From a virus, in the IMG/VR virus record IMGVR_UViG_3300042891_001008, positions 1-51,542 of that record: 51,542 bases of DNA, one strand, 5' to 3'. A program made the translations under genes and the position numbers. The notes under the pieces were generated by a model. It saw only the letters and a program-made list of their open reading frames with translations. It was not told the origin of the DNA and did not search any database. Shown one piece after another: positions 9,454 through 51,326 of the stretch. Position 1 is the first letter of the stretch, and each line of letters begins with the position of its first letter.

Positions 9454-10248
9454 ATGATTAACCGAGATAGCGCATACAAAGACGATTTACTGGGGACCTC
9501 CTGGATTGGAGAAGTAGTGGATATAGAAGATCCTCTAAAAATAGGTAGAGTTAAAGTTAATGTATATGGTAAATTCGATAAAATTCCTACTGAAGATATT
9601 CCATGGGCTTATCCTGGAAATAATAACACTGCAGGTTCTGCAACCGGTGGAGGATTCTTTTCTGTTCCTAAAAAAGGAACTGTTGTTTCGGTTAAATTCG
9701 ATCAAGGTAACATATATCACCCAGAATATTTCTTTAATCAAAAAATATCTGATGAGGTTAAAGCAGAAATCGAAGGATCTTACCCGAATGCTCATGTTAT
9801 TGTTTTTGATACAGTAACTGAAGGGGCTTTAAAAATATTCTTCACTGAACAAAAAGGTTTGATGTTAGATTATAAAGAAACACAAATCAACATTAAACCC
9901 GACAAATCCATAGATATTCATACTGCTTCAGGTAATTCAAAAATCGAATTATTAGATGATGGTAAGCTTAATGTTACTAATGCTTCAGATATAACTATAA
10001 AGTGTGATACGAAAATCAGCATTACATCCACTAACGAAACTACAATCAAATGTGATAAGCTAATTATCGATCATGCATCAACTATAGAATTAGGTAAAGG
10101 TGCAACTGAGAAAGTTATTTTAGGTAATAAATTTATGTCACTTTTTAATTCACATACTCATATTGGAAACTTAGGTGCTCCAACTTCTCCACCTATTAAA
10201 CCAATGACTCCTGCTGAACTAAGTCAGAAAAAAGTAGTCGTTAAATAA
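9454..10248 (+). CDS. Baseplate spike protein, gp5/gpV-like, without lysozyme domain
   Basis: Residues 15-100 form an OB-fold typical of gp5/gpV/VgrG (WIGEVVDIEDPLKIGRVKV, then IPWAYP, a Gly-rich loop and PKKGTVVSVKFDQG). Residues 140-225 are short alternating strands expected of a triple-stranded beta-helix. An HTH triplet near residue 232 (SHTHIG) matches the His-x-His found at the tip of P2 gpV-type spikes, where six histidines of a trimer bind iron. There is no lysozyme insertion as in T4 gp5. It pierces the outer membrane on tail contraction (family knowledge). Confidence 0.88.
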   Translation: MINRDSAYKDDLLGTSWIGEVVDIEDPLKIGRVKVNVYGKFDKIPTEDIPWAYPGNNNTAGSATGGGFFSVPKKGTVVSVKFDQGNIYHPEYFFNQKISDEVKAEIEGSYPNAHVIVFDTVTEGALKIFFTEQKGLMLDYKETQINIKPDKSIDIHTASGNSKIELLDDGKLNVTNASDITIKCDTKISITSTNETTIKCDKLIIDHASTIELGKGATEKVILGNKFMSLFNSHTHIGNLGAPTSPPIKPMTPAELSQKKVVVK

Positions 10249-10257
10249 TTTTAAATT

Positions 10258-10602
10258 ATGCCATTAGTTAAAGCCACACTAGACACAACAATAAAATCTC
10301 AATTAGAACCTTTAATTGAGGCTAAGACAAAAGATGCTTTTGAAAAAGGGCTTCTTAAATTTCAATCTGAATTAACTCAAGTTTCTACAGTCGCCGATGT
10401 AAATAAGGCTATAACTGCTGCTTCTATTGTATTCTCTAAGGAAATGAAAAAGCTAGCTGCGGATATTTCCAAATCGGTATCTGACAATGTAGACACTTAC
10501 ATAAAAGCCGGAACAGTTAATGTCCTCGTTAATGGAGTTACTGTCGGAGCTCCTTCCCCACACGCAATCACTGCACAACCTGGAATCGGTACTATATCCT
10601 AA
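10258..10602 (+). CDS. Spike-associated hypothetical protein (114 aa)
   Basis: No family is recognised. Residues 1-85 are helical and Lys/Ala-rich. The end (VNVLVNGVTVGAPSPHAITAQPGIGTIS) looks like short strands with Gly/Pro turns. It directly follows the spike gene, 9 bp away, and could cap or load the spike. It is not a PAAR protein: the expected PAAR/His/Cys pattern is absent. Confidence 0.6.
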   Translation: MPLVKATLDTTIKSQLEPLIEAKTKDAFEKGLLKFQSELTQVSTVADVNKAITAASIVFSKEMKKLAADISKSVSDNVDTYIKAGTVNVLVNGVTVGAPSPHAITAQPGIGTIS

Positions 10603-10659
10603 GATATATAATCTAATAATACAATAATCTATTTACTCACCCTTTAATACAAACAAAAA
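10603..10659 (+). promoter_or_regulatory. Leader of the S1-domain gene with candidate promoter core
   Basis: gatatataat (10603-10612) shares the ATATATAAT core with 3927-3935 and 11863-11871. It is followed by a pyrimidine stretch (tttactcaccctttaat) and an A-rich run (acaaacaaaaa) that reaches the ATG at 10660. No Shine-Dalgarno sequence is present. The A-rich run is the likely ribosome-loading signal. Confidence 0.35.
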
Positions 10660-11853
10660 ATGAAAAAAACAAACGGAGAAACGGCTTACTTCGAAACCGA
10701 TGTCTATGTTGACGACAAAGGTAATTTCGATTGGGATCGCTTTGAAGCTGAAAACCCACGAAAACTTAAGCACAACAAAAAAATTAAAATGCATCCAGGA
10801 GATGACAGTAAAGTTTATTGTACTGCTCCATATGCACAAGAATTGTACGAATTGTACAATGGCTCGCTCACACATTTAAAAGAGCCGAAAGAAGGTTCCG
10901 TAGTTCAAGGAACTGTTGTATCTCTTACCACCGACGTAGCTATCGTTGATGTAAATTGGAGAGAAGATGCAATGATTGAACTTAGAAAGGAGAACCAAGA
11001 GTTTCTCAAGTACATCCAACCAGGATTCCCTGTGGAAGTCCTTATTGAAAGAGTTGGAGGTGTATCAGCTAAATATCCAATCCAAGCTTCTTATTCTAAG
11101 AATATTATTTCTAAGAAAAGAGATGAAATTATGGCAGCAATTGGAGAACCTATCGCTTACTTAGGTAAAGTTACCGAATTGATTCACGGAGGTTACTTCT
11201 TGGATATCGAAGGAATTAAATGTTTCATGCCAGGTTCACTTGGTGGAATGAACAAATTAGTTAACTTTGAAGAACTTGTAGGTAAATCTATTTATGTAGT
11301 TCCAATCAACTATTCAAGAGAGAAAGATTATATCGTTGTATCTCATAGAGAATACCTTAAAGCTCTAGTTCCTCAAGAAATTGATAAATTAGAAATGGGT
11401 AAAGAATACGAAGGATTCATTACTGGAACTAGTAAACATGGTATCTTCGTTGAATTTAATCAATGCTTAACTGGTCTTATTAGTCGAAATGATATAGATC
11501 CTGCTAAAATCGATGACTTTGATAACAAACGATTCAAAGCTGGAGACAGTATCAAATTCTTTGCTAAAGAAGTTATTGATAATGAGAAAATCGTTCTTAC
11601 TCAAAAGGTTATTGAACCTGAAGTTTCTGTATGGGACGATGTTGAAAATCGATATAAAGTTCCTTCAACTGTAACTGGTAAAGTTAAGAAAATTGTAAGA
11701 TATGGAGTTTTCGTAGAGTTAGAACCTAAATTAGTAGGTCTTCTACACAAATCACATCTCGAAGAAAATATCGAATTAGAGGTAGGTCAAGAAATTGATG
11801 TTAAAATAATCCGAATCGATAAAGACAACAAGAAGGTCGATTTCTCCATGTAA
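10660..11853 (+). CDS. Ribosomal protein S1-like RNA-binding protein with four S1 domains
   Basis: Four S1 (OB-fold) repeats follow an 76-residue N-terminal extension. They start near residues 77 (GSVVQGTVVSL, degenerate), 161 (YLGKVTELIHGGYFLDI), 243 (GKEYEGFITGTSKHGIFVEF) and 332 (STVTGKVKKIVRYGVFVEL). The last two carry the canonical GxFVEx ... GLxxxS/H pattern. Bacterial S1 has up to six such repeats and brings A/U-rich mRNA to the 30S subunit. This version could replace or compete with host S1 on infected ribosomes (inference). It interrupts the baseplate genes and has its own leader and possible promoter, which suggests separate expression. Confidence 0.9.
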   Translation: MKKTNGETAYFETDVYVDDKGNFDWDRFEAENPRKLKHNKKIKMHPGDDSKVYCTAPYAQELYELYNGSLTHLKEPKEGSVVQGTVVSLTTDVAIVDVNWREDAMIELRKENQEFLKYIQPGFPVEVLIERVGGVSAKYPIQASYSKNIISKKRDEIMAAIGEPIAYLGKVTELIHGGYFLDIEGIKCFMPGSLGGMNKLVNFEELVGKSIYVVPINYSREKDYIVVSHREYLKALVPQEIDKLEMGKEYEGFITGTSKHGIFVEFNQCLTGLISRNDIDPAKIDDFDNKRFKAGDSIKFFAKEVIDNEKIVLTQKVIEPEVSVWDDVENRYKVPSTVTGKVKKIVRYGVFVELEPKLVGLLHKSHLEENIELEVGQEIDVKIIRIDKDNKKVDFSM

Positions 11854-11858
11854 TCTTC

Positions 11859-11875
11859 ATGAATATATAATAAAA
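11859..11875 (+). promoter_or_regulatory. Candidate late promoter, second copy
   Basis: The sequence atgaatatataataaaa is identical over 17 bp to 3923-3939. It lies in the 38-bp gap after the S1 gene, with its G 31 bp before the ATG at 11892. It would start a transcript for the wedge block. Confidence 0.4.
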
Positions 11876-11891
11876 GAAGATTGAAACACGA

Positions 11892-13253
11892 ATGAATTTT
11901 AATTCACATGGGCTTAATGCCTTGTTTGAAAAGTCACTAATTAGAATAATCGCAGATTTTGGGTCCGATAAGGACCCAAGGTCTGTTATTTCTGAATTGA
12001 CAAAGGACTTGAAGACTAAAGTTTCATCTTTGGATCCAGGACCTTATAATTTCAATCTCACTAGAGGAGAGGATGGAGTTTATCATTTGACGACTCCATT
12101 TATGTTGTATAGAGATTCTAGATTAGTTTTAATCAATCTTTTAAAATGGATAGAAAGAAGTGGTAAGACGGACAGAAACGATAACTTATTCATCGATTTG
12201 AAATTTATGGATGAAGTAAAAGGTCCTTTTAAAGGAACTTTGTTTAACACGGGAACCAAAATCGAAAGTATTGATAAACTTAAATTTATTTTAGAATTTG
12301 ATGAAACTAAGATCTATAAAACATTCCCTTCTAGAAAGGATGGTTTCGTTTCTAAATCTATTATGAGATTCAATCCGAAGCAAAAATTCATCCCAAAAGA
12401 AAATTCTTCAATAGATCCTAATTTATACGATATTCCTAATACTGTAAATAGTGGAGTTAATTTTGAAACTTTAAATCAAGGTTTCTTAAGACTTCAATAC
12501 ATAGGAGGGACTCGATATGAACAAAAAATAGAAGAGATCCTAGATATATTAAATGGATTTTGTGTTACTTCTTGGAACTGTACAATAAACAAAGGATTTT
12601 CTAGAGAGAATATATTAACATTCCAAAAAGAAATAGCAAAACATAATAAGATCAGAGAATCATATTATGATTATGCTGTTTTTAAATCTTTATTTCCTGG
12701 GATTAAATTTACCGTAGATATGATTGACGATAAAAAAACTTTAGAGTCATACTATCAAATATTGAGAGATCGTATCTATGAAATTTTCTCTAATCTAGAT
12801 TTTAAAGGAGATTTAGAGTTGAATTACGACACGACACTTTCAATGTTCCAAATCAAAGAAGGTAACCTAAAATGTAACGATATTTATGGTATCGAAATGA
12901 TAATGTGTAAAGTGGAATTTGGTAATTTCGTAAATTGTGATTTTTATGATTGTGAAATCATAGATGCTAAATTACAAGGATGTAATTTGTTCTTACATAC
13001 ATCTGCAAATAGATGTAATTTATTCGATTCTTTTGCAAATAGAACTTGTGAATTACTTAATTGTGAATTTGATGGAATGAATGGAGTAATGAACACTAAA
13101 ATGGTTGGTGGATTATTCCGTAAAGGTAAAATTGGTAGTTTTGCCGATATATCTGATACAACTACAGTTATTCAATATCAACCGCTTAAAGCTGGTTATA
13201 TGGTTGTTGGAGATAAAATAATCATACCGACAAAAAAATTTAGACAACTATAA
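11892..13253 (+). CDS. Possible amidoligase-like protein with pentapeptide-like C-terminus (453 aa)
   Basis: The middle region (about 110-230) has the order IDKLKFILEFDE ... FPSRKDGF ... GFLRLQYIGGTRYEQKIEEI. This resembles the phage amidoligase (COOH-NH2 ligase, glutamine-synthetase-like) layout of a helix, an FPSR segment and an F/L-R-x-x-Y/I-x-GG strand. Catalytic residues cannot be confirmed and the usual His before the first helix is not seen, so this may be an inactive structural relative. Residues about 320-420 contain spaced Cys/Asn/Phe pentapeptide-like repeats (CDFYDCEI, CNLFLH, CNLFDS, CEFDG), suggesting a beta-helix. It overlaps the next gene by 1 bp (taATG). Confidence 0.45.
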   Translation: MNFNSHGLNALFEKSLIRIIADFGSDKDPRSVISELTKDLKTKVSSLDPGPYNFNLTRGEDGVYHLTTPFMLYRDSRLVLINLLKWIERSGKTDRNDNLFIDLKFMDEVKGPFKGTLFNTGTKIESIDKLKFILEFDETKIYKTFPSRKDGFVSKSIMRFNPKQKFIPKENSSIDPNLYDIPNTVNSGVNFETLNQGFLRLQYIGGTRYEQKIEEILDILNGFCVTSWNCTINKGFSRENILTFQKEIAKHNKIRESYYDYAVFKSLFPGIKFTVDMIDDKKTLESYYQILRDRIYEIFSNLDFKGDLELNYDTTLSMFQIKEGNLKCNDIYGIEMIMCKVEFGNFVNCDFYDCEIIDAKLQGCNLFLHTSANRCNLFDSFANRTCELLNCEFDGMNGVMNTKMVGGLFRKGKIGSFADISDTTTVIQYQPLKAGYMVVGDKIIIPTKKFRQL

Positions 13254-14032
13254 TGGCATATGATAATTGTAGCCCAGGAGGTCCTATGACTCAGGACGAG
13301 TTCATCGCATTAGTTCAACAAGAACTTAGTGTTGCATGTGCTCTCCCGTTCACAGTTCCACCAACGGAAATTCAAAGGATTATAAAGCTTTCGGCCGATT
13401 GGTTTTATAAAAAATACGAAGATGCAGTAGAGGAAAGATATTACATCATCCCAACTACAATGTTCAAGACAGAACAATTTAAAAGGGAGAGGACTGTTAC
13501 TATGCCTGATTGCATATTTTCGATTTGGCAATTGAAGAAGCTAAAAGAAGATTTTGGTCGATCTATGTCTTTTGATGGAACTGCCGATTTTGGTATTGAA
13601 CGTTTATTCTTATCTGACTCGGTTTCTATCGGTCAAGGTACTGAGAATTTGATGTATTACACATTAAATCTTTATTGGTTAGATGTAGCTTCACATGTTA
13701 TTAATCATACGATAAGCTATAATTACAATAGAAATACTCATAAGCTATTTTTTGGTGGTGAAACTCCTAATAGAGATTGTGTTGCTTTAACATACACAAA
13801 AATTCCTATTGAACACCTAATAAAAGATGAAATTTTCTATCGTTATGTAGTTGCTAAATGTAAAGTTCAGCTTTCTAGAATTCTAGGAACCTTTAACTTT
13901 AACCTTCCAGGTAACATACAAATCAATTACGATTTGATCAGATCTGAAGGAACTGATGAGATAACTAAGATTGAAGAGGAGGTTAAATCTGAAGAAGGAA
14001 TGGACTTCTTTATGACTTCTGGAGGTTCATAA
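13253..14032 (+). CDS. Putative virion structural protein (259 aa)
   Basis: The family is not firmly recognised. An N-terminal helical region (residues 12-50) is followed by a conserved-looking strand start (RTVTMPDCIFSIWQLKK) and a C-terminal helical segment (FYRYVVAKCKVQLSRILGTFNFNLPG). This layout is common in T4-like neck or connector-type proteins of environmental phages. Its place directly before gp25 makes a baseplate- or neck-associated role plausible. The 80-bp gap downstream is the largest within the wedge block. Confidence 0.55.
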   Translation: MAYDNCSPGGPMTQDEFIALVQQELSVACALPFTVPPTEIQRIIKLSADWFYKKYEDAVEERYYIIPTTMFKTEQFKRERTVTMPDCIFSIWQLKKLKEDFGRSMSFDGTADFGIERLFLSDSVSIGQGTENLMYYTLNLYWLDVASHVINHTISYNYNRNTHKLFFGGETPNRDCVALTYTKIPIEHLIKDEIFYRYVVAKCKVQLSRILGTFNFNLPGNIQINYDLIRSEGTDEITKIEEEVKSEEGMDFFMTSGGS

Positions 14033-14112: not shown

Positions 14113-14478
14113 ATGGCAATTGATATCTACTTTAAGCTTCCTAGTGACTCAGTTTTCAATCCGAAAGGGATAGAAGAAGAGAGTGCAGTGGAGATTTTTC
14201 TTCAACAAGTCGATATGATATTAACTACGGAAAGAGGTACTGTTTTAGGAGATCCTGAATTCGGCTTAAATTTAGAAAAATATCTTTGGTCTTATTCAGG
14301 GGGTTCAGGTTCAATACAACAAGAAATTAACCAACAGATTGCAAATTATGTCTATATAGAAGATCCGATTGACTATGAAATATCGGTTAATTTTATCTCA
14401 GGAGAAATTTGGGATAGCATATTAATCGATGTTCTTATCGATGGTGAAAAAATTGCCGGCTATATGATGGCACCATAA
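14113..14478 (+). CDS. 25: Baseplate wedge protein gp25
   Basis: The 121-residue length and the sequence TERGTVLGDPEFGLNLEKYLW (residues about 39-59) match the gp25 / GPW family, whose conserved E-P-R/GxxxGxPxFG core packs in the wedge. The following EINQQIANYVYIEDP and strand pair fit as well. gp25 forms the wedge core with gp6 and gp53 in contractile systems, and the next gene is gp6-like, the usual order. Confidence 0.88.
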   Translation: MAIDIYFKLPSDSVFNPKGIEEESAVEIFLQQVDMILTTERGTVLGDPEFGLNLEKYLWSYSGGSGSIQQEINQQIANYVYIEDPIDYEISVNFISGEIWDSILIDVLIDGEKIAGYMMAP

Positions 14479-14491
14479 AAGAAAGAAGAAA

Positions 14492-16255
14492 ATGAAATTT
14501 TTAGAATCAAATAGAATTAAATTCGATCAGATTATAACTGATACTAGAGAATACTTAATCAATACGTATTCTCAGGCTCAATCTGTTTTTACTAAGTCTT
14601 CTCCATTTGGACAATTGTTAGACGTATTAACTGAATATTCACAGTTGATATTCTTATACATTGAAGATGCTTTAGTTGAATTGAATATCACAACCGCCAA
14701 TAAACAAAGATCTGTTTTTGGACTTTCTCGTCTTACTGGACATAATCCTACGAGACCACTTTCGGCTCAAGGGACTTTGAATATTAAAATTTCTCCAGAT
14801 GCTAAAAGTGAAGTAAACGCTAGTTATATCATGTTATTAGATAAAACTAAATTAAGTTGCGTTAATAACGGTTACAAATATTTTGTTCAATTAGGTAATT
14901 CATTAGAAAATATTAAGATAAACATTAACGAAGTTAATCAAATCCCTATTAAAATAATCCAAGGGGAAATAGAAGAACAGACTGTTGCTGGAACAGGTTT
15001 ACCTTTACAATCTTATACATTCACTTCTAAGAAACCTATCGAAAATGAAATGGTTTGGGTTTATGTTAATGGAGAAGCTTATGAAGTTGTAGATTCTTTA
15101 TATGATATGACGAAAGATGATAAGCTTTGTATGGTTAAAACTGGTATTAGTGGTGGTATAGATGTTTATTTTGGAAATGAAGATTATGGAGTTATTCCAG
15201 GAATAGGAGCTTTAATTACTGTTAGATATGTTAAGACTGACGGATTTTCGGGTAATATATTCTCAAAATCAAATCAGGTTACTTGGCAATGGATTGATAA
15301 AGGTTATACAAACACAGGAGAAGAGGCTGATCTAAATGTTGTTCTAATGACTTCAATAGATAAACCTATAATACTTGGAGCTGACGCAGAATCTATAGAA
15401 TTAACTAAAATCATTGCACCTAAAACTAGTAGAGCTTATGTTCTAGCTAATCCTGATAATTACGTTAAACTTCTTTCTAGATTCAATTATTCATATGTTG
15501 ATGCATATACTACATGGGACGATGAATACATAAACGACGATAACATCGTTTATTTATTTTTGATTCCGGATATTCAAAGAAGATTAAGTAAAAATACGGA
15601 TTATTTCACTACGGATTTGAAAAACTTCTACTTAGATCCGGATGAAAAAGCAGCTCTGTATGATTATATCAATAGATCTGGGCAACAAATCATGTCTACC
15701 GAATTAAGTGTAGTTGATCCAGTTGTTACCAAATATGCTCTAAATATATTTTTAAGGGTTTTTGATACTAGTGATCAGGTTACAATAAAAAATGAAATCA
15801 CTAGCAAAATTACCGAATATTTACTTAAAGTAAAAAGGAGAGACAAGATACCAAAATCAGATATAATTTCCATCGTTGAAAATATTGAAGGGGTTGATTC
15901 TGTTTCTATTTCTTTCGTTTCTAAAACAAACGAAGATGCAATCATCGACGGTTATTACATTAAGAGAAATAATTCTATCGATAGAATTAGAGGAATTATG
16001 ACAGTAACAGAAACAAAAATCCCTGTTGCTGAAGGATCAGATCCTAATTTAGGTCTTGATGAATTCGGTGATATAGTAATTGGTTTAAATGAATTACCTC
16101 TAGTTCGAGGTGGTTGGTATGATCGATTCAGTAATTTCTATGAAGATGGATTAAACAGTGGAGAATTTTCTTCTATGAATATTATCGTAAAAGAGGTAAT
16201 CCGAGAATCGTTATCGGTTAAGATGATGAATAAAAATAAAGAATCCTTGAAATAA
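14492..16255 (+). CDS. 6: Baseplate wedge protein, gp6/gpJ-like
   Basis: The 587-residue product has the gpJ-family start: an N-terminal helix, then SSPFGQLLDVLTEYSQLIFLYIEDALVELNI and GLSRLTGHNPTRP (about residues 42-92). In this family that segment precedes a central beta domain and a helical C-terminal part. The later PVVTKYALNIFLRVF ... ITSKITEYLL ... KIPKSDIISIVENIEGVDSVSI region is the typical second wedge domain. gp6 dimers form the inner ring of the baseplate. The gene follows gp25 by 13 bp with an A/G-rich leader (aagaaagaagaaa). Confidence 0.85.
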   Translation: MKFLESNRIKFDQIITDTREYLINTYSQAQSVFTKSSPFGQLLDVLTEYSQLIFLYIEDALVELNITTANKQRSVFGLSRLTGHNPTRPLSAQGTLNIKISPDAKSEVNASYIMLLDKTKLSCVNNGYKYFVQLGNSLENIKININEVNQIPIKIIQGEIEEQTVAGTGLPLQSYTFTSKKPIENEMVWVYVNGEAYEVVDSLYDMTKDDKLCMVKTGISGGIDVYFGNEDYGVIPGIGALITVRYVKTDGFSGNIFSKSNQVTWQWIDKGYTNTGEEADLNVVLMTSIDKPIILGADAESIELTKIIAPKTSRAYVLANPDNYVKLLSRFNYSYVDAYTTWDDEYINDDNIVYLFLIPDIQRRLSKNTDYFTTDLKNFYLDPDEKAALYDYINRSGQQIMSTELSVVDPVVTKYALNIFLRVFDTSDQVTIKNEITSKITEYLLKVKRRDKIPKSDIISIVENIEGVDSVSISFVSKTNEDAIIDGYYIKRNNSIDRIRGIMTVTETKIPVAEGSDPNLGLDEFGDIVIGLNELPLVRGGWYDRFSNFYEDGLNSGEFSSMNIIVKEVIRESLSVKMMNKNKESLK

Positions 16256-16506: not shown

Positions 16507-19500
16507 ATGTATAAATATTTACGATTTTTTAATAAAGATGGAAATTACACTAATTTCGAATATGATGAAACTAGTGATAAATGGACTGGTCGTGTAGACA
16601 TGCACACGATATCAACCGGATTGGTTGAAAATTATGATCTATTTCTTCTCGAAGAAGTTTGGGATCCTATTAATAATTTAAGAACCTGGTCATCTCCGAT
16701 AGGAACTACCGGAGTTACGGGATTCAATGCATCATTTGATATTAGAAATCCGGTAGACGACATTTTTATGTATACGTTTACCACCGGACCAACTTCATCC
16801 TCATTAGAATTAAATAAGGTTTATAATCTTGATTATGATGTTATTTCTACATCTTATACAATAGGAGGAACTGCATTCCCGTATCCTGGAATAAAAATTA
16901 CATCAGGTATCGTTTCAGAATCTATTCCGATTCATATTGGATTTTTACCGACTTCCGAATATGGATATTCTTCTACAATAACCATAACCGACACAAACGA
17001 TCATATCGTTGCCGAGATAGAAATTTACGGAGAAGGTGAAGAGGAGGATGAAAGACTTAAATCTATGCTATCAACTTTAGGACATGATCTTTTACCCGAA
17101 GATTCGATTATTTTTGATTCTTTCGATGTTAATGAAGAAGGTATTGATTGGCAATTAATTAACAGAAAGAGAAAAGAGCTTCTATTAGAACATTCTAACA
17201 TATTCCCTTACTTAGGATCTTACAAAGCCTTAATCAATATCATTAAATTCTTTGGATATCAAAATGTCTATATGAAAGAGTATTGGCAAAATGTAGATAT
17301 AGCCTCTCCTAATTATCTTAAATATCGACAAACTAATATTATTGATATATTTAGCGAAAATGCTAAATTTAGCGATACGCAATTAATCCCTAGTAAGATC
17401 TATAAGAAGACTAGCAAATTTGGTCTTTTTTATGATATTAATGTTGTTACTGAGGATTTTGATACTGAAGGACTTCCGATAACTTCAGAAGTTTTTACTT
17501 TTACTCCTGAAGAAGTTTTAATTAAGATCTATGCTTTAAAGAAGAAACTACAAAATTATTACCTTCCTGTTAACGCTAAAATCGTAGATATTATAGGTGA
17601 AGCTATCTATTTTGCTCAATATAAAATTCAAACTATAAATGAACAAAATAGAATAGATGCCGTATCATTAGGTCTTAAACCTAAACTTTCGATATCACCT
17701 TCGGCTAAAGGACAACTACAAGATCTTAGACCTCTATATTATTTAGGATTCCCGGTTGGTGCTGATTTGAATAGTGGAGGTTATACTAATTTGTGGAGCT
17801 ATTCGGTTGAAGTGGATTCTAATATAGTAACAAACACCGGACAATTCATTGATTTGGATTTGACCTTTGGATTTGTTTCGCCTGGAGCTACTGTAGCATC
17901 TTTACAATATAGATGGTCTAGAGATCAAGATACCGGAAATACCGTTTACACACAAAGTCAGATATGCAAAAAGATAGCAGATATGATAAACGATCCAAGT
18001 GGAAAATATATTTGGATTGGTGGAGCTACCGGGAGTTCTTATATTTCAGATAATTATTTTGCTTATCCTGAAAGTAATGGGGATCATGTTCGAATTCTAG
18101 AGAAAGTTCATAACACGACTATAGATGTAATTTATACGTCTTTTGTAAATGGTTGGATAGCTCCATACAATCCACCTACGATATATCCTGGTAGTGGAAC
18201 TTTTGCTTATATTGATGTTTCTTTAGGTGGATCTTTCGGTGCCTCAGGTGCACCTATGTCTTATTATTCAGATACATTCATGGGTTATTTTAACAACATG
18301 AATATCTCGGTTAAAAATCTTAACGATGATGAAGATATTCCTATCGGATATCCAATTGTTTTACATAACGATACTTTCGATATTACCTGGGATGATGCTA
18401 ATGTTACTTTTAATCAAGTGGATCAGAAAGATCCAGGTGTTACTGGACCATATACACAACTATTATATTCACAATTCAACAATTCATATAATGTGAGTGG
18501 ATGGACTTCAACTCCTAATTATGGTGCTTCAGGTGCAACTTATGTTAGTATTCCAGTAACCGTAGGAACTCCGGGATTCCCTTCCGGATTCCCAAATCAA
18601 GATATATTTTCTTGGATAAATCTTGGATTTTATGGATACTATGAAATGCAATGGATTATAACCGGTCCTTCTGGATTCTCTTATAATTCAGGACAACAAT
18701 CAATAGCTTCGGCAAATGATTTATCTTTGATTTTACCTTACGTAGGTTTCTATAAAGTTGAACTTTATTTATGGGATCTTTATAACACTAGATCTATGTT
18801 AATTGAAGATAAATTCATTGAGGTGACTATCCCTGATTCTGATTTTATCGGTTGGTATCAAAAGAGAGAATTAAATTACGAATGGAATACCAGGAAATAT
18901 GACGTACAATCAGATTATGTACAACCGACCCCAGCTTTAGGTATGCCTCTCAAACCACATTTAACTTGGGATGAATATGCATCTACATGGGATCTTCCCC
19001 TACACCCTAACGAAGAAATAGGAATGCTCGAATTAAGTACTAATTCATTGGATTCTATCGAGTTTTATCAAAGCATGGTTAATCCGATAAATAATCCTTT
19101 AGTTGATCGTTATCCTTACCATTTTAATTTAATAGGAAACCAAGCAACTTGGGATGATTCATATCATCTTTGGTGGGATAATACAGGAACTCGTATTACT
19201 GAATTTGTTATAAAAGATCTACCTGGACCAATATGTAACATATTCATGAATAGAGGAAATTGTACCATTAATTTAGACGGATCATTAGATATGTTTACTG
19301 AACTCGGTCCTACTGGATGGACTGGAGCTACTGGAACTGCTATTAGTATGCCGGTTGGAACTACTGCAGGAGAAGCTTTAAAAGTTCTTACGAATGGAAG
19401 AGTTTATGTATGGGACGGATCTTCTACTTGGAATTATTCGAATGAAGAATTAGATGTAATTAGCATAACGGTTGGTTCGGGTTCTACTGCTTCAAGATTA

Positions 19501-20388
19501 AAACAAGCTACTCACATCCTAAATAGTATTGTTCCTGGATCAAATCCAGTATTTGAAGATTTTATATACTACTACAATGAAGAATATGATTCTAATTATG
19601 CTTTACAGCCTTATATAAAAGCTGCATCTAAAAATTTCGATAAAATGGGTAGACACCGTATTAATATTCCTACGGCTAATCCTTCTGATTATGACAGTAA
19701 ATCTTACGAAACCGTTTATTTTGGTTACTTAGGCGATATACCTACACATTTTGAGATATTTGAAATACCTACAACTTTATCATCTCAACCTAGAATATCA
19801 ATATCATATCCTAGTGGAGGAAGTTCAATGACGGTCCCTTATTATATAGGTTCTACAACTTTGATCGATTTAGCAAATGAATTAAACGGTTCTACTGCAC
19901 AAGCCTATCCCGGAATCGGTGACTTTACATATAATATAGTGTTGGGAGCCTCAGGGTTTACTGGAGGAACTGGACCTACGGCATCATCTATAACTAGTGT
20001 TAAGCTACAAGGAATTGCCAAGGCTTTTGTAAGTCCTCAGGATATAAATGTGACTTTCAACGGAAATATAAAAGGAACTACTTATGGTAGATCTCTAATA
20101 AAAAATCCAACTTGGAATGATCTAAGAATACTTAAATATACGGATGAGTTACCACTTCTTACGGTTCTTAACTTCACTTACGATAATTCGAAAATGAAAG
20201 GAAAGAAAAATCCTAAATGGACTCTTATTAAGGATGGTGACCCTAACTTCGAGAATATATACTATAATAATAAGTACTTTTCGTACATGTTTACCAAGAG
20301 AGGTAGTTATACGATCTCATTAGAATTGGAAGATACAAACGGAAATACAAAAACTGTTACAAAAAACGAAATAATAAAAATAATCTAA
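16507..20388 (+). CDS. Large baseplate wedge protein, gp7/gpI-like
   Basis: The 1293-residue product begins with a beta-rich region (1-190). Residues about 215-350 contain a tail-protein-I type segment: NRKRKELLLEHSNIFPYLGS, then YKALINIIKFFGY and a long helix KKKLQNYYLPVNAKIVDIIG. That block occurs in P2 gpI and in the gp7-like wedge proteins that follow gp6. The middle is strand-rich with many Ser/Gly/Tyr. The C-terminal 80 residues (YMFTKRGSYTISLELEDTNGN) look like a PKD/Ig-like domain. It probably spans from the inner wedge to the periphery. Confidence 0.72.
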   Translation: MYKYLRFFNKDGNYTNFEYDETSDKWTGRVDMHTISTGLVENYDLFLLEEVWDPINNLRTWSSPIGTTGVTGFNASFDIRNPVDDIFMYTFTTGPTSSSLELNKVYNLDYDVISTSYTIGGTAFPYPGIKITSGIVSESIPIHIGFLPTSEYGYSSTITITDTNDHIVAEIEIYGEGEEEDERLKSMLSTLGHDLLPEDSIIFDSFDVNEEGIDWQLINRKRKELLLEHSNIFPYLGSYKALINIIKFFGYQNVYMKEYWQNVDIASPNYLKYRQTNIIDIFSENAKFSDTQLIPSKIYKKTSKFGLFYDINVVTEDFDTEGLPITSEVFTFTPEEVLIKIYALKKKLQNYYLPVNAKIVDIIGEAIYFAQYKIQTINEQNRIDAVSLGLKPKLSISPSAKGQLQDLRPLYYLGFPVGADLNSGGYTNLWSYSVEVDSNIVTNTGQFIDLDLTFGFVSPGATVASLQYRWSRDQDTGNTVYTQSQICKKIADMINDPSGKYIWIGGATGSSYISDNYFAYPESNGDHVRILEKVHNTTIDVIYTSFVNGWIAPYNPPTIYPGSGTFAYIDVSLGGSFGASGAPMSYYSDTFMGYFNNMNISVKNLNDDEDIPIGYPIVLHNDTFDITWDDANVTFNQVDQKDPGVTGPYTQLLYSQFNNSYNVSGWTSTPNYGASGATYVSIPVTVGTPGFPSGFPNQDIFSWINLGFYGYYEMQWIITGPSGFSYNSGQQSIASANDLSLILPYVGFYKVELYLWDLYNTRSMLIEDKFIEVTIPDSDFIGWYQKRELNYEWNTRKYDVQSDYVQPTPALGMPLKPHLTWDEYASTWDLPLHPNEEIGMLELSTNSLDSIEFYQSMVNPINNPLVDRYPYHFNLIGNQATWDDSYHLWWDNTGTRITEFVIKDLPGPICNIFMNRGNCTINLDGSLDMFTELGPTGWTGATGTAISMPVGTTAGEALKVLTNGRVYVWDGSSTWNYSNEELDVISITVGSGSTASRLKQATHILNSIVPGSNPVFEDFIYYYNEEYDSNYALQPYIKAASKNFDKMGRHRINIPTANPSDYDSKSYETVYFGYLGDIPTHFEIFEIPTTLSSQPRISISYPSGGSSMTVPYYIGSTTLIDLANELNGSTAQAYPGIGDFTYNIVLGASGFTGGTGPTASSITSVKLQGIAKAFVSPQDINVTFNGNIKGTTYGRSLIKNPTWNDLRILKYTDELPLLTVLNFTYDNSKMKGKKNPKWTLIKDGDPNFENIYYNNKYFSYMFTKRGSYTISLELEDTNGNTKTVTKNEIIKII

Positions 20389-31976: not shown

Positions 31977-34900
31977 ATGCCAATAACAATTAAAGAGCTA
32001 TTTCCTTCGGATCCTTTATCCGAAGCATTAGAAAAAATAAATTTTAACTTCGATCAGTTAATTTTAGCTGGTGGAGGACCTCCTGGACCTGCTGGACCTA
32101 TTGGACCTCAAGGAGTTCCCGGTCCTTTAGGGACTAGAGGAGATCATTGGTTTGTTGGTGCTTCAGCATTAGGTCAAACTGCGGATCATGATGGAGGATC
32201 TTTAAAAGTTGAAGATCACTTCTTAGATTCTTTAGGTGATGTATATTCTTATTTTGATATATCCGGTTCTACTGGATGGACTGCAAGTGGAATTAATTTA
32301 AAAGGTCCGATAGGACCTACCGGAAATACTGGTGGATCTGATGATGTTTTAATTAGAGCCGGTGGTTCTGGAAATGCTGTAACTTCAACATCCAACGGAT
32401 ATGGTCCTCAAGCTTCTTCAACTCCAACCACTGGAGCAACTGTAGATTTTTGGTTCCCTAAAAATATGGGGAAAAATTCAGTATTTGTTGGTGATGCTGA
32501 TTGGGCTGTTAATTTCTTACAAAATTTTGGAGCTAATTCTTCTGCTCTAACTGATCAAAATTCGGTTCCTCAAATTTCTATCATCCAAAAGAATACTAAT
32601 CAATCTGCTCTAAATGGACTTATGATTGGTACTATGGGAGGTGGTTATGGAGCTACTTCTAATGCTCTTCCTGAAGGTGGAACTGGATCAACAACTTCGG
32701 CTTTTGATTTTGTTCATTTTGCTTTCGGTAAACCTTTCGTTGCAGGATCTTATGATAAAATGTTCCGTATTAAATCATTCCGACAAAAATTCAGAATAGA
32801 AGTTGGTGGAACTATACCAACAAATGAAGCTCTTAACAGTCTACAATTAGCATCGAGAGATTTTAGTTGGATCAACAATACCGATGGACAATTCATATCA
32901 GGACAGACTAAACAAGGAATTGTAAGTTATTCTTTACAACAATTAACAGGATTAACAGGATCTGGTATAGAAATGTTTTCTAAACCGGATTGGGGAACTT
33001 CTTATGCTACTCAGAAATATGGAATTATAGGATTCCAAAATGTTCAAGGAACTCCTCCATCTTTCCCTAATTTTAATCCTGCTCATGGATATGGTAATGT
33101 TCATATTGGTGCTACTTCAAATGGTACTTTACCGTATGGAACGAGAATGCAACAAGCTTTAGGTATTACTAGACCTATTGGATATGGGAGTGGTAATAAT
33201 GACTCTGCAATTAGATTTTTTAGTTCTGATTTTCCTGAATCTGGAGTTGAATGGTCATCTATCGTTGGTGGAATTCGTCCGTTCACACAAACAATAACAA
33301 ATACATCAGGTACTTCTGATATTCGAGCTATACAAATTGGAGCGGGTCGTCCTACAACTGCTACACTTTCTCCAGGTACTCAAAGTAGACAAATTGGAGG
33401 TAGAGTAGGAATTAATAATCATCCTGGATGGAATGATTATAATTCTGCAAGAACAATTAATTTCCCAGTACATATTAATTTAACAGGGTTCCAAGTACCT
33501 GAAGATAAAGCTACTTCTGCATATCCTGGACAATCTCCTCTATCATCTATAGAGCAATGGGCTTTTGGAGTAGATTATGATCGAGTTGCCGGAGAAACTG
33601 GTTCTTGGCATGCTGGTTGGGATACCGATTCTCCCGGATTTGGTATTGCTTATGGATATGGTTACACTGCTGCTACTGGAGGAACAACTTGGACTACACG
33701 TCCTTTAGTCCTAAATTCTTATTATGCAGGAACAGCTACTAATAATGTAATGACTGGTAGAAGAAATCCTAATCTTTACTTACAAATCGGTAGAGATGGT
33801 AGTATAGGAAATACAGGAGACGGTGGATTTGGTAACGTAGGTTTAGGGTTTACTCCAAACTGGAATACTCCAGGAAAATGGGTAGATGCTTGGTCTAAGT
33901 TATCGATTAACGGTGGAATTACAATAGGTGGTGCTGATAGTGGATGGCATGAGCAAAACGATTTAAGACCTTTCATGGGGATATCTATACAAGGTGCAAT
34001 ATATCAAGGATCTACCGGATCTACTGGTCTATTTGCTACTGCTTATTTTGGTCCCACTGGAATTAATACAGCCACAGGTAACTTAATTAAAATAACTTCG
34101 GATGGAGTTATTATGGGAGATAAAATAGTAGCTAGAGGTTTATTGAATCAAGCAAATCTCAATAACGTTCCACATTTATCTCTTCCCGATTTAAGAACTG
34201 GTTTATCGATGTATGCTAATCAACCAGGTAGAGGTTATTTCACAGTTCCTTCAACAGTACTTGCAGGTGGAACTTACGGTTCAGGTCCTACATCTGGATC
34301 TACTGATGTTGCTTACAGTTCTATTGATGCACAAGAGATTTTTAATCTTAATCCGGCACCTGCATTTGTAATGACAAAAAGGGTAGTTCATGCTACTTCT
34401 GGATCTGATACTCGATTAGGGAAAGTCTACACTTTAACAGACTTATATAATCGAGGTTTTAAGACTGTTCATTCATTTGCATATCCAACCGGAAGTCCTT
34501 TGTCTGGACAAACTAGAAGACGTTGTTGGTTACCCATACCATCGGATAATTCTACTGTAGTTTTAGATTTTTCTAGAGGAGTTGTTGGTCTTGCGGGTTG
34601 GGTTGGAGCGACTTGGACTGCTGCACCGACCCCAGGTTTTAATCAAATTATAGAATGTTTTTTAAATGGAGATGCTGCTATATATAATACGACAGTATAT
34701 CCTGGATATAATGAGAAGATTCCAACTGGATTTGTAACCGCTAGGGATTTTAATAAAGGACAATGGGGATTAACAATTGACCCAGGAAGATATGAAGGAC
34801 AACAATTAACTATCATTATTAAGGATGTAGATTTCAGAAATGCCCTTAATGGAAGAAGTGAAGATGGAGGTACATTGAATCCTGGTCCATTTTTTATGGC

Positions 34901-40573: not shown

Positions 40574-40942
40574 ATGAAAACATTTAAAGAATATCTTGTA
40601 GAAAGTGGAACCTTTACCGAGATTGAAATTCACATGCTTAACGAAAACCTTAAGACCGAGCTTACTCAAGAAGAAGAGGCTAAGGTTGATAAAGCAATTA
40701 AAGAATTCGTTGCAGAATATCTCGAAAAGAATAAAGGAATGAAAGAATTTAATGAAGAGCTAACTAATGAAGGTTTCTTAGGATCTATTCTAGGAGGTCT
40801 TACTGGTTTTGCGTTAGGTTCTTCGATTGGAAAAATAATAGCTAATGTTTTAGGGATCGAAAAGGGAGTTGTATTTGATTTGTTAACTAGTCGTCTTGTT
40901 GGGGCTGCTCTCGGAGCTGCACTTGGCAAAAAGATGCTATAA
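40574..40942 (+). CDS. Capsid-targeted protein with glycine-zipper membrane segment (122 aa)
   Basis: The N-terminus (MKTFKEYLVESG) is again of capsid-targeting type with an L-V-E site. A second possible site is ELTNE-G near residue 67. The rest (FLGSILGGLTGFALGSSIG ... LVGAALGAALGKKML) contains glycine-zipper hydrophobic stretches characteristic of membrane-inserting proteins. A role at entry, such as membrane passage of DNA or superinfection exclusion, is inferred. Confidence 0.6.
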   Translation: MKTFKEYLVESGTFTEIEIHMLNENLKTELTQEEEAKVDKAIKEFVAEYLEKNKGMKEFNEELTNEGFLGSILGGLTGFALGSSIGKIIANVLGIEKGVVFDLLTSRLVGAALGAALGKKML

Positions 40943-40952
40943 TTTATATGAT

Positions 40953-41555
40953 ATGAAAATTGGAATAGATTTTAGTATAAATAGTACCGCAATAACAATT
41001 AAGAAAGATGATGGGACTTTGGTCCTTTTGTCTTTTGTACCAAATTACAGACCAGAACTTAAAGGTTTCCAAACTCACGTAGCAATATCTGAATTCGTAG
41101 AAATTCATACTTACGTAAAGGGATCTAATACAAAAGATCCTATCGCTGATCAATCAATCAAATTACAAAATGCTGATCAGCTGTCTAATTCTATTATAGA
41201 AGCGATAAGCAAACATATTAAAGGAAAACCGAGCATTCTAATAGAAGGTTTCTCTTTCGGATCTAAAGGAAATTCATTCATAGATCTAATCACATTCAAT
41301 ACTTTTTTAAAGGTTAAAATGATTCAAAAGTGGGGACATAACATATCCGTTATCTCACCGAAGTCATTAAAGAAGATGTATACTGGAAACGGTAATGCTG
41401 GGAAATGTGAAATGTTAAGAACTTTTATAGGTACAAATCAGAGTCCTTTTAGGGATAAATTAGTAGAGTTAGGTCTTGATAGAGAAGGTGAATTCACTAT
41501 ACCAAAACCCGTTGATGATTTGATAGACAGTATAGCCCTTGTCGAATGGGTGTAG
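40953..41555 (+). CDS. RuvC-like Holliday junction resolvase
   Basis: The 200-residue product has the RNase H fold resolvase pattern: MKIGIDFS (Asp6), ILIEGFSFGSKG (Glu98), a helix with NTFLK, VISPKSLKKMYTGNGNA, and PVDDLIDSIAL (Asp188/189 and Asp192). These acidic residues would form the metal site. An upstream ATG at 40896 would add 19 residues overlapping the previous gene; the start at 40953 was chosen because the RuvC fold begins there. It would resolve branched DNA before packaging, in place of T4 endonuclease VII. Confidence 0.82.
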   Translation: MKIGIDFSINSTAITIKKDDGTLVLLSFVPNYRPELKGFQTHVAISEFVEIHTYVKGSNTKDPIADQSIKLQNADQLSNSIIEAISKHIKGKPSILIEGFSFGSKGNSFIDLITFNTFLKVKMIQKWGHNISVISPKSLKKMYTGNGNAGKCEMLRTFIGTNQSPFRDKLVELGLDREGEFTIPKPVDDLIDSIALVEWV

Positions 41556-50378: not shown

Positions 50379-51326
50379 ATGGAAAACAATTTCGACATCT
50401 TCAACCTGAGTCTTGATAATTTCAAGACCGAAGAAAAACAAAAATCAGGTGGATCTGACATCTATAAAACAGATCCTAAATTATCTAAAGATTCTATCTA
50501 CAGAGCAATCGTAAGGTTCATCCCGAACACCAAAAACCCTAAACAATCTATCGTTAAGAAATTCTCTTATTGGTTAGAAGACGCTGAAGGTAATGGATTC
50601 TATGCTGACTGTCCTTCGTCAATCAACGAAAAATCAGTTATCCAAGATACATTCTGGAAGTTATTCAAATCAGAATCAGCTTTTGATAAAAAACAAGCTG
50701 AAAGAATTAAACGTAAAGAGTATTACTACTCTTATGTAGAAATCATTAAGGATGCACAACGTCCTGAAATGGAAGGAACCGTTCAAATCTTACGTTACCC
50801 TAAAGCGGTTAAGAAATTAATCGATGCACAAATCTCTCCAGATTCTTCTGATATCGAATTAGGGGTTGATCCAACTAACATCTTCGACTTCTTCAATGGT
50901 AAAGACTTCTCTTTGAAAGTAACATTGAAAGGTGGATATTGGAATTATGACGAATGTAAATTCGCTGCTGCACAATCTCCAATTTCTGTCGGTGGTGTAA
51001 AAATGGAAAACAACGCTGAATGTCGACAAATGATCTTAGGTCTTTATGAAGGCATTCCTGAATTGGATGTCCACGCTTTCAAACCTTGGTCAGATGAAAT
51101 CAGAGACAGAGTACATGCTTATCTAGGTGACTTAACAGGAAATCCAGGTAAATCATACGCTTCTACAACTAATTATTCAAAAGTTGAAACTCCTGTTGCT
51201 TCGGCACCAGTTACTTCTCAACCTAAAAACGAAACTCCAATGGACTTAGGTCAAGCTTCTAATCAAGCTGCAACCTCTTCAGACGGAGATATCGAAGACT
51301 GGTTGAAAGAATTCGACATGAAATAA
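50379..51326 (+). CDS. 32: Single-stranded DNA-binding protein, gp32
   Basis: The 315-residue length, OB-fold centre and acidic tail are those of T4 gp32. PTNIFDFFNGKDFSLKVTLKGGYWNYDECKF (about 166-196, quoted here in parts as NIFDFFNGKDFSLKV and GGYWNYDECKF) matches the gp32 FEGxNFxLKV-GxxNYDxSxF region. The C-terminus (DGDIEDWLKEFDMK) is the acidic peptide that recruits replication partners. The Zn-binding His/Cys set of T4 gp32 is not conserved: only one Cys (79) lies in that segment. It covers ssDNA in replication and recombination. A terminator follows. Confidence 0.85.
   Translation: MENNFDIFNLSLDNFKTEEKQKSGGSDIYKTDPKLSKDSIYRAIVRFIPNTKNPKQSIVKKFSYWLEDAEGNGFYADCPSSINEKSVIQDTFWKLFKSESAFDKKQAERIKRKEYYYSYVEIIKDAQRPEMEGTVQILRYPKAVKKLIDAQISPDSSDIELGVDPTNIFDFFNGKDFSLKVTLKGGYWNYDECKFAAAQSPISVGGVKMENNAECRQMILGLYEGIPELDVHAFKPWSDEIRDRVHAYLGDLTGNPGKSYASTTNYSKVETPVASAPVTSQPKNETPMDLGQASNQAATSSDGDIEDWLKEFDMK

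What the first reader, a model, noticed from the sequence alone, without database searches (positions are those of the whole stretch)
10660..11853. Phage ribosomal-S1-like protein inside the late cluster
Four S1 domains in a 397-residue protein are similar to the RNA-binding part of bacterial S1. The genome's start sites lack Shine-Dalgarno sequences, so a phage S1 could recruit ribosomes to A-rich leaders or displace host S1. It has its own leader and a candidate promoter core.
Basis: partly seen in the sequence, partly recalled or inferred. Interest (0 to 1): 0.76.

Follow-up and report, generated by a model that had tools for sequence, protein, structure and literature searches.

The report
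Phage ribosomal protein S1 look-alike
This virus of bacteria carries a shortened copy of the host's mRNA-catching ribosomal protein S1, and the gene is a fixed part of a widespread, uncultured group of large phages, where it probably helps load viral messages onto host ribosomes late in infection.

Summary
Window 10660-11853 (+) encodes a 397-aa protein with four S1 domains. It is not just the RNA-binding part of S1: it is collinear with domains 1-4 of bacterial bS1, ribosome-docking helix included, and has an FDWDxFE N-terminus found here only in Bacteroidota bS1 and phage relatives. Hundreds of IMG/VR contigs encode relatives. The 49 non-redundant phage proteins form one clade, so this is an old phage lineage. 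Starting from a baseplate-wedge gene instead of S1, all 55 loci with both flanks have S1 between baseplate hub and g16. A GATATATAAT promoter-like motif precedes S1 in 31 of 42 lineages (shuffles 1.9) and g16 in 22 of 41, which fits late expression from its own promoter. Start sites lack Shine-Dalgarno sequences, but so do three S1-less Bacteroidota phage cousins (1 of 102 starts). Missing SDs therefore reflect the host and do not explain why the phage needs S1. Most likely it docks on the host 30S subunit late in infection, competing with or supplementing host bS1. Docking, RNA binding and timing are inferred. Huge-phage S1 proteins were reported in 2020, so this is a new, well-resolved member of a known kind.

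The parts
10660..11853 (+). S1-like gene, 397 aa, four S1/OB domains (gene g15 here)
   Evidence: ORF; Pfam S1 2.9e-27; TIGR00717 profile positions 13-342 of 516, 147.8 bits; AF2 + Foldseek
10726..10746 (+). FDWDRFE motif (residues 23-29), signature shared with Bacteroidota bS1 N-termini
   Evidence: F 95%, W 88% of 41 phage S1s; F[DN]W in all six Bacteroidota bS1s examined, absent from E. coli, Thioclava, Neochlamydia, PhiMa05
10831..10875 (+). Helix equivalent to the bS1 N-terminal uS2-docking helix (residues 58-72, YAQELYELYNGSLTH)
   Evidence: AF2 helix 59-72; model 59-397 aligns to bS1 1-346; YAQELY conserved in phage family and Lak
10897..11109 (+). S1 domain 1; D97 (10948-10950) and R101 (10960-10962) correspond to bS1 D39 and K43, the latter a contact with the uS2 zinc pocket
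   Evidence: alignment; conservation 95% each (R/K); contacts from PMC10123108
11152..11379 (+). S1 domain 2, most conserved domain, with invariant FMPGSL.G.NKL
   Evidence: mean column identity 0.71
11398..11607 (+). S1 domain 3 (F263, F266 invariant)
11656..11847 (+). S1 domain 4 (Y348, F351, H363 invariant, K392 98%): canonical S1 RNA-binding face
10603..10612 (+). GATATATAAT, candidate phage (late-type) promoter core of the S1 gene
   Evidence: conserved in 31 of 42 lineages with at most 1 mismatch, 24-49 nt (one 68) from the ATG in those with at most 2; shuffles 1.9
10613..10659 (+). S1 leader, A-rich, with a C..TTTAA element before the A-rich run; no SD
   Evidence: pattern C[CT]*TT+AA in 34 of 43 S1 leaders; 0-33% for other genes of the cluster
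9454..10248 (+). g13, baseplate hub/spike OB protein (gp5-like)
   Evidence: PHROG 430 4.9e-19; Pfam Phage_base_V 5.5e-6
10258..10602 (+). g14, small late-cluster protein, not conserved across the family
11862..11871 (+). AATATATAAT, candidate promoter core of g16, directly after the S1 gene
   Evidence: same motif upstream of g16 in 22 of 41 loci
11892..13253 (+). g16, next late gene, follows S1 throughout this family
13253..14032 (+). g17, neck/head-tail adaptor protein
   Evidence: PHROG 211 1.6e-12; annotated 'neck protein' in PTm1
14113..14478 (+). g18, baseplate wedge gp25-like
   Evidence: PHROG 43/261
14492..16255 (+). g19, baseplate wedge subunit, used as the S1-independent anchor
   Evidence: PHROG 219 3.9e-28; scan

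Best explanation
The gene encodes a shortened bS1 (domains 1-4) captured long ago, probably from a Bacteroidota host, and since kept as a core late gene of a large clade of Bacteroidota-type jumbo phages. It is transcribed from its own late-type promoter inside the baseplate module. The protein docks on the host 30S through its domain-1 helix and the uS2 contacts, and presents domains 2-4 to the A/U-rich, SD-less leaders of late phage mRNAs. It supplements or displaces loosely bound host bS1, so that virion-protein messages are loaded efficiently. Shown here: the domain architecture, collinearity with bS1 D1-D4, the conserved docking and RNA-face residues, the single phage clade, fixed synteny, the conserved promoter-like motif, and the missing SDs. 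Inferred: ribosome binding, competition with host bS1, preference for phage mRNA, and late timing.
For: Profile-profile match to bS1 is collinear from the FDWD motif through domain 4 (E = 6e-43), and the best structure matches are bS1 in 30S mRNA-delivery complexes. In domain 1, the least conserved of the four (0.44), D97 and R/K101, equivalent to bS1 D39 and K43, are each kept in 39 of 41 sequences; Y348, F351 and H363 of domain 4 are invariant. E. coli bS1 needs only domains 1-3 to bind 30S, and a strain lacking domains 5-6 is viable (PMC3858243), so a D1-D4 protein could work. Adding F. johnsoniae bS1 doubled the reaction amplitude on an SD-less mRNA, and bS1 was sub-stoichiometric on purified ribosomes (PMC9976891), so there is something to compete for. 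S1 is present in all 55 loci tested from the baseplate side (33 S1 clusters at 90% identity). Promoter-like motif. In Lak phages the related S1 is not beside the baseplate genes; it lies about 600 bp from a Thg1-type tRNA-His guanylyltransferase gene, so its role does not depend on the baseplate. A phage bS21 of Bacteroidetes phages also sits among structural genes and is expressed late (PMC9723584).
Against: No experiment shows ribosome binding. The E. coli pair F5/F9 is replaced by L62/Y66, and position 66 is not conserved (Y in 20 of 41). S1-less cousins translate SD-less genes, so the protein is not needed for that in general. The score is far below NCBI's curated rpsA cut-off (147.8 against 577 bits), although only 2 of 14 control genomes pass it. 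The origin from Bacteroidota rests on a short N-terminal motif; the tree neither supports nor rejects it (p-AU 0.35). The fixed place inside the baseplate module would equally suit a virion role.
Confidence: 0.6

Rival explanations
1. An off-ribosome RNA-binding protein: the S1 domains coat, remodel or protect late phage mRNA, or tie it to RNA polymerase or nucleases, without exchanging with host bS1.
For: Domain 1 is the least conserved domain while the RNA face of domains 3-4 holds invariant residues. S1 domains occur in NusA, PNPase, RNase R and other RNA proteins, and these appear in the fold searches. Mizuno et al. note that the S1 domain is not exclusive to ribosomal proteins (PMC6375957).
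Against: The whole protein is collinear with bS1 D1-D4 and keeps the domain-1 helix and the D39/K43 equivalents, which an off-ribosome protein would not need; OB1-OB2 geometry matches 30S-bound bS1 (9guq_B, 169 residues, 3.4 A).
Confidence: 0.22
2. A virion or baseplate-assembly protein: the OB folds were exapted as a structural part or assembly factor of the baseplate, which explains the fixed place between hub and wedge genes.
For: 55 of 55 loci keep S1 inside the baseplate module; OB folds are used in baseplate hubs (g13 is one).
Against: RNA-face residues are invariant. In the >600 kb huge phages and Lak phages the related S1 sits away from the wedge and neck genes. It has its own promoter-like motif, as does the next gene. 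Cousins with homologous wedge, gp25-like and neck proteins build virions without any S1-domain protein.
Confidence: 0.12
3. A decoy or poison: the truncated S1 occupies the uS2 site and blocks host translation rather than promoting phage translation.
For: It lacks domains 5-6, and host bS1 is loosely bound, so competition is plausible.
Against: It keeps domains 3-4 with an intact RNA face, which a pure blocker would not need; E. coli S1 lacking domains 5-6 still supports growth; late phage genes are SD-less too, so a block would hurt the phage.
Confidence: 0.06

Closest known systems
Huge-phage 'possible rpS1' proteins (Al-Shayeb et al. 2020, PMC7162821)
   Same: S1-domain proteins in huge phages whose genes rarely have SD sequences. 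LR756500 (462 kb) encodes a 41%-identical protein in the same late-gene context; LR756501-4 and LR745206 (634-735 kb) encode 30% relatives. That these records belong to that study is my recollection; the records themselves carry no annotation.
   Different: That paper reports them in 'a few genomes' with up to six domains and calls 'true' rpS1 hard to confirm. Here the family is found in hundreds of contigs with four domains, a fixed locus, a conserved promoter-like motif and bS1 docking features. The SD correlation is shown to be confounded by the host.
Bacterial ribosomal protein bS1, Bacteroidota type (e.g. PDB 9zcd, 591 aa)
   Same: FDWDxFE-type N-terminus, docking helix, S1 domains 1-4 in order, RNA-face residues.
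   Different: 24-26% identity, four instead of six domains, a phage-specific stretch of about 30 aa between the FDWD motif and the docking helix, its own long-stemmed clade.
Phage bS21 of Bacteroidetes phages (Chen et al. 2022, PMC9723584)
   Same: A ribosomal protein of the mRNA exit platform, encoded among structural genes of Bacteroidetes phages and expressed late.
   Different: A different protein. bS21 was not found in the records of this family, but is present together with S1 in the >630 kb phages.
Lak megaphage S1-domain protein (Prevotella phages)
   Same: FNW/FDW motif...KVFSHESYAQELY N-terminus and domains 1-3.
   Different: 26% identity, insert in domain 1, no domain 4, not next to the wedge or neck genes; near a Thg1-like gene.
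PhiMa05 jumbo cyanophage bS1 (PMC13157829)
   Same: Phage-encoded bS1-like protein, 359 aa.
   Different: Groups with cellular S1 proteins, not with this clade; lacks the FDWD N-terminus.

Membership tests
Ribosomal protein bS1 (rpsA) | Tandem S1 (OB-fold) domains | tested here: met
   Pfam S1, four stretches, 2.9e-27; four OB folds in the model
Ribosomal protein bS1 (rpsA) | Collinear with bS1 including the N-terminal docking segment and domains 1-2 | tested here: met
   phmmer 63-395 = E. coli 6-344; hhalign E = 6e-43; VIA-align model 59-397 = 1-346
Ribosomal protein bS1 (rpsA) | uS2-contact residues: D39/K43 equivalents and aromatic F5/F9 of the N-helix | tested here: inconclusive
   D97 in 39/41 and R/K101 in 39/41 kept; F5/F9 replaced by L62/Y66, variable
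Ribosomal protein bS1 (rpsA) | NCBIfam TIGR00717 rpsA curated cut-off (577 bits) | tested here: not met
   147.8 bits; the cut-off is passed by only 2 of 14 control genomes
Ribosomal protein bS1 (rpsA) | Six-domain architecture seen in the Bacteroidota bS1s used here | tested here: not met
   four domains; full-length phage members about 357-447 aa
Ribosomal protein bS1 (rpsA) | Association with the 30S subunit and role in mRNA loading | not testable with these tools
   needs biochemistry
Huge-phage rpS1 group (Al-Shayeb 2020) | S1-domain protein in a large phage genome with phage late genes around it | tested here: met
   baseplate/neck genes on both sides; relatives on 246-462 kb records
Huge-phage rpS1 group (Al-Shayeb 2020) | Phage genome rarely uses SD sequences | tested here: met
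   3/46 starts in window, 20/553 in relatives
Huge-phage rpS1 group (Al-Shayeb 2020) | One common clade with the other phage S1 proteins | tested here: met
   49 phage S1s on one side of a branch, SH-aLRT 100, again 100 with long branches removed
Virion structural protein | Present in purified virions | not testable with these tools
   no cultivated phage with this S1 clade found in the phage collection, apart from metagenome-assembled records

The most novel reading that the evidence does not exclude
The phage builds late, virus-specific ribosomes: its own bS1, a core gene of the clade, replaces host bS1 on the 30S during virion production (and may be packaged to act at once in the next cell), shifting which SD-less mRNAs are initiated.
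Probability: 0.3. Interest if true: 0.78.

Novelty: new member of a known kind. Interest (0 to 1): 0.52.

Why it matters
How Bacteroidota ribosomes choose start sites without SD pairing is still open, and bS1 is the suspected reader of the A-rich leaders. A phage lineage that has kept its own four-domain bS1 under strong constraint, next to cousins that do without it, gives a natural comparison. It also corrects the published hint that S1 carriage explains SD-less phage genomes: S1-less relatives are equally SD-less.

Tried and rejected
(1) 'Recent theft from the host': rejected, because phage S1s form one long-stemmed clade and share only about 25% identity with any bacterial S1 found. (2) 'S1 compensates for missing SDs': rejected as a sufficient reason, since S1-less cousins are equally SD-less. 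(3) Bacteroidota origin from the tree: undecided (p-AU 0.35); only the N-terminal motif speaks for it. (4) sigma-70-type promoter near S1: none reported upstream of S1, total below shuffles; the GATATATAAT motif is not enriched over the window and only its conserved position counts. (5) Host bS1 relatives in viral contigs with A2: only one weak hit, itself a phage S1. (6) genome-contig scan gave three loci, one a phage-type S1 on a contig of a rumen MAG labelled Erysipelotrichaceae, beside g18/g19 homologues, the other two ordinary or distant S1s. (7) PHROGs has no family for this protein (best 0.024). (8) No tRNA or Rfam family in the window.

Full report
What is there. The window is a whole 51,542-base IMG/VR record, a linear phage fragment. 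ORF 10660-11853 (+) encodes 397 residues with a strong Pfam S1 match in four stretches. AlphaFold2 on 41 family members gives mean pLDDT 83 with four OB folds. The best solved structures are E. coli bS1 on the 30S subunit (Foldseek 3.4e-26); VIA-align pairs model residues 59-397 with bS1 1-346. A profile-profile comparison aligns the family to bacterial bS1 from the FDWD motif through domain 4 (E = 6e-43).

Docking and RNA-binding features. In E. coli, bS1 is held by its N-terminal helix and by K43 in the uS2 zinc pocket (PMC10123108). The phage family keeps the helix (YAQELY...), and D97 and R/K101 at the places of D39 and K43 in 39 of 41 sequences each, although domain 1 is otherwise the least conserved domain (0.44). 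The aromatic pair F5/F9 is not kept. Y348, F351 and H363 in domain 4, and F263/F266 in domain 3, are invariant. E. coli bS1 with domains 1-3 binds 30S fully, and loss of domains 5-6 is tolerated (PMC3858243).

Family and origin. The count rests on tblastn matches and may include other S1 proteins; 80 loci were read. Full-length members have about 357-447 aa. In a tree of 49 phage S1s and 14 cellular or other S1s, the phage proteins lie on one side of a branch (SH-aLRT 100; repeated without long branches). The N-terminal FDW[DE]x[FY]E motif is shared with all six Bacteroidota bS1s examined and absent from E. coli, Thioclava, Neochlamydia and PhiMa05. The tree itself cannot say whether the phage clade is sister to Bacteroidota (p-AU 0.35). 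The simplest reading is one old acquisition from a Bacteroidota host.

Genomic place. Around S1, gene order is fixed: g12, g13 (baseplate hub), S1, g16, g17 (neck), g18 (gp25-like), g19 (wedge), down to 37-40% S1 identity and including the 462-kb phage LR756500, where extra genes are interspersed. As a test independent of S1, I searched with the wedge protein g19. All 55 loci with both g13 and g19 carry S1 between them, 50 of them as g12-g13-S1-g16-g17-g18-g19. They hold 33 S1 clusters at 90% identity, and at most 7 of the 79 contigs had been seen before (by contig names). S1 is therefore a core gene of the clade. In the >600 kb huge phages it sits elsewhere, beside tail-tube-like or g24/g25-like genes, and in Lak phages away from the wedge and neck genes, near a Thg1-like gene.

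Own transcription signal. GATATATAAT (at most one mismatch) lies within 100 nt upstream of S1 in 31 of 42 lineages (shuffle mean 1.9, max 6), mostly 24-49 nt from the ATG. The same motif precedes g16 in 22 of 41, g5 in 5 of 9 and g9 in 6 of 20, and is rare before other genes. In the window it lies at 10603 (S1), 11862 (g16), 3926 (g9) and 31895 (upstream of the gene at 31977). Its overall count in the window is not above chance, so the evidence is its conserved position. Likeness to T4-type late promoters is my inference. S1 leaders also share a C..TTTAA element (34 of 43; 0-33% elsewhere).

The SD argument. Starts in the window are SD-less (3 of 46), as in the relatives (20 of 553, against 12.4% at internal ATGs), with 50-60% A upstream, as in F. 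johnsoniae (PMC6847099). The nearest cultivated phages by wedge and neck genes include Tenacibaculum phages pT24 and PTm1, Sphingomonas-named phage PAU, Flavobacterium phage MaF61 and Chryseobacterium phage MA9V-1. None of these five has a family S1 or any Pfam S1 match, yet sampled 30-kb stretches of PTm1, pT24 and MaF61 show SD-like motifs at 0 of 36, 0 of 32 and 1 of 34 starts. The published correlation of S1 with SD-less huge phages (PMC7162821) is thus expected from the host alone.

How it most likely works. Late in infection, from its own promoter, the phage makes a D1-D4 bS1 that docks on 30S and helps load the A/U-rich leaders of virion genes, supplementing or displacing host bS1. Support from others: F. 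johnsoniae bS1 stimulates initiation on an SD-less mRNA and is sub-stoichiometric on isolated ribosomes (PMC9976891); viral bS21 and bL12 enter ribosomes in E. coli (PMC6375957); phage bS21 is expressed late with structural genes (PMC9723584). Ribosome binding, competition and timing are not shown. Rivals, in order: off-ribosome RNA chaperone, virion or assembly protein, translation poison.

Verdict. It is a new member of a known kind (huge-phage rpS1), better resolved than before. Some relatives are already annotated as 30S ribosomal protein S1 in public viral entries.

Noticed in passing
window 11952-11986: A 15-pair stem-loop (GCAGATTTTGGGTCC..GGACCCAAGGTCTGT) lies about 20 codons into g16, just after the S1 gene and the g16 promoter-like motif; terminator-like or an attenuator.
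   Followed up: no
L013:14409-14870, L014:14460-14849, L015:14430-14840: In three >630 kb huge phages the gene directly upstream of S1 encodes a small related protein (by eye); the L015 copy has a UvrB/UvrC (UVR) motif (Pfam 4.1e-8).
   Followed up: partly
L016:15001-16110 and 16722-17534: Lak phage S1-domain protein lacks domain 4, has an insert in domain 1, and lies about 600 bp upstream of a Thg1-like tRNA-His guanylyltransferase gene.
   Followed up: partly
L021-L024 (LR756501, LR756502, LR756504, LR745206): The >630 kb phages carry both S1 and bS21; Lak phages, LR756500 and this family's records carry S1 without bS21.
   Followed up: partly
L025:1977-3119: A phage-type S1 with divergent g18/g19 homologues sits on a 43-kb contig of a rumen MAG labelled Erysipelotrichaceae: a mis-binned phage or a prophage.
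   Followed up: no
window 40896-41555 and 50379-51326: RuvC-like resolvase (PHROG 159) and a single-strand DNA-binding protein (PHROG 224) follow the structural genes on the same strand.
   Followed up: no
window 16507-20388: g21 (1293 aa) ends in a weak PKD-like domain; homologues in the sister contigs are only about 50% identical, typical of a large tail or adhesion protein.
   Followed up: no
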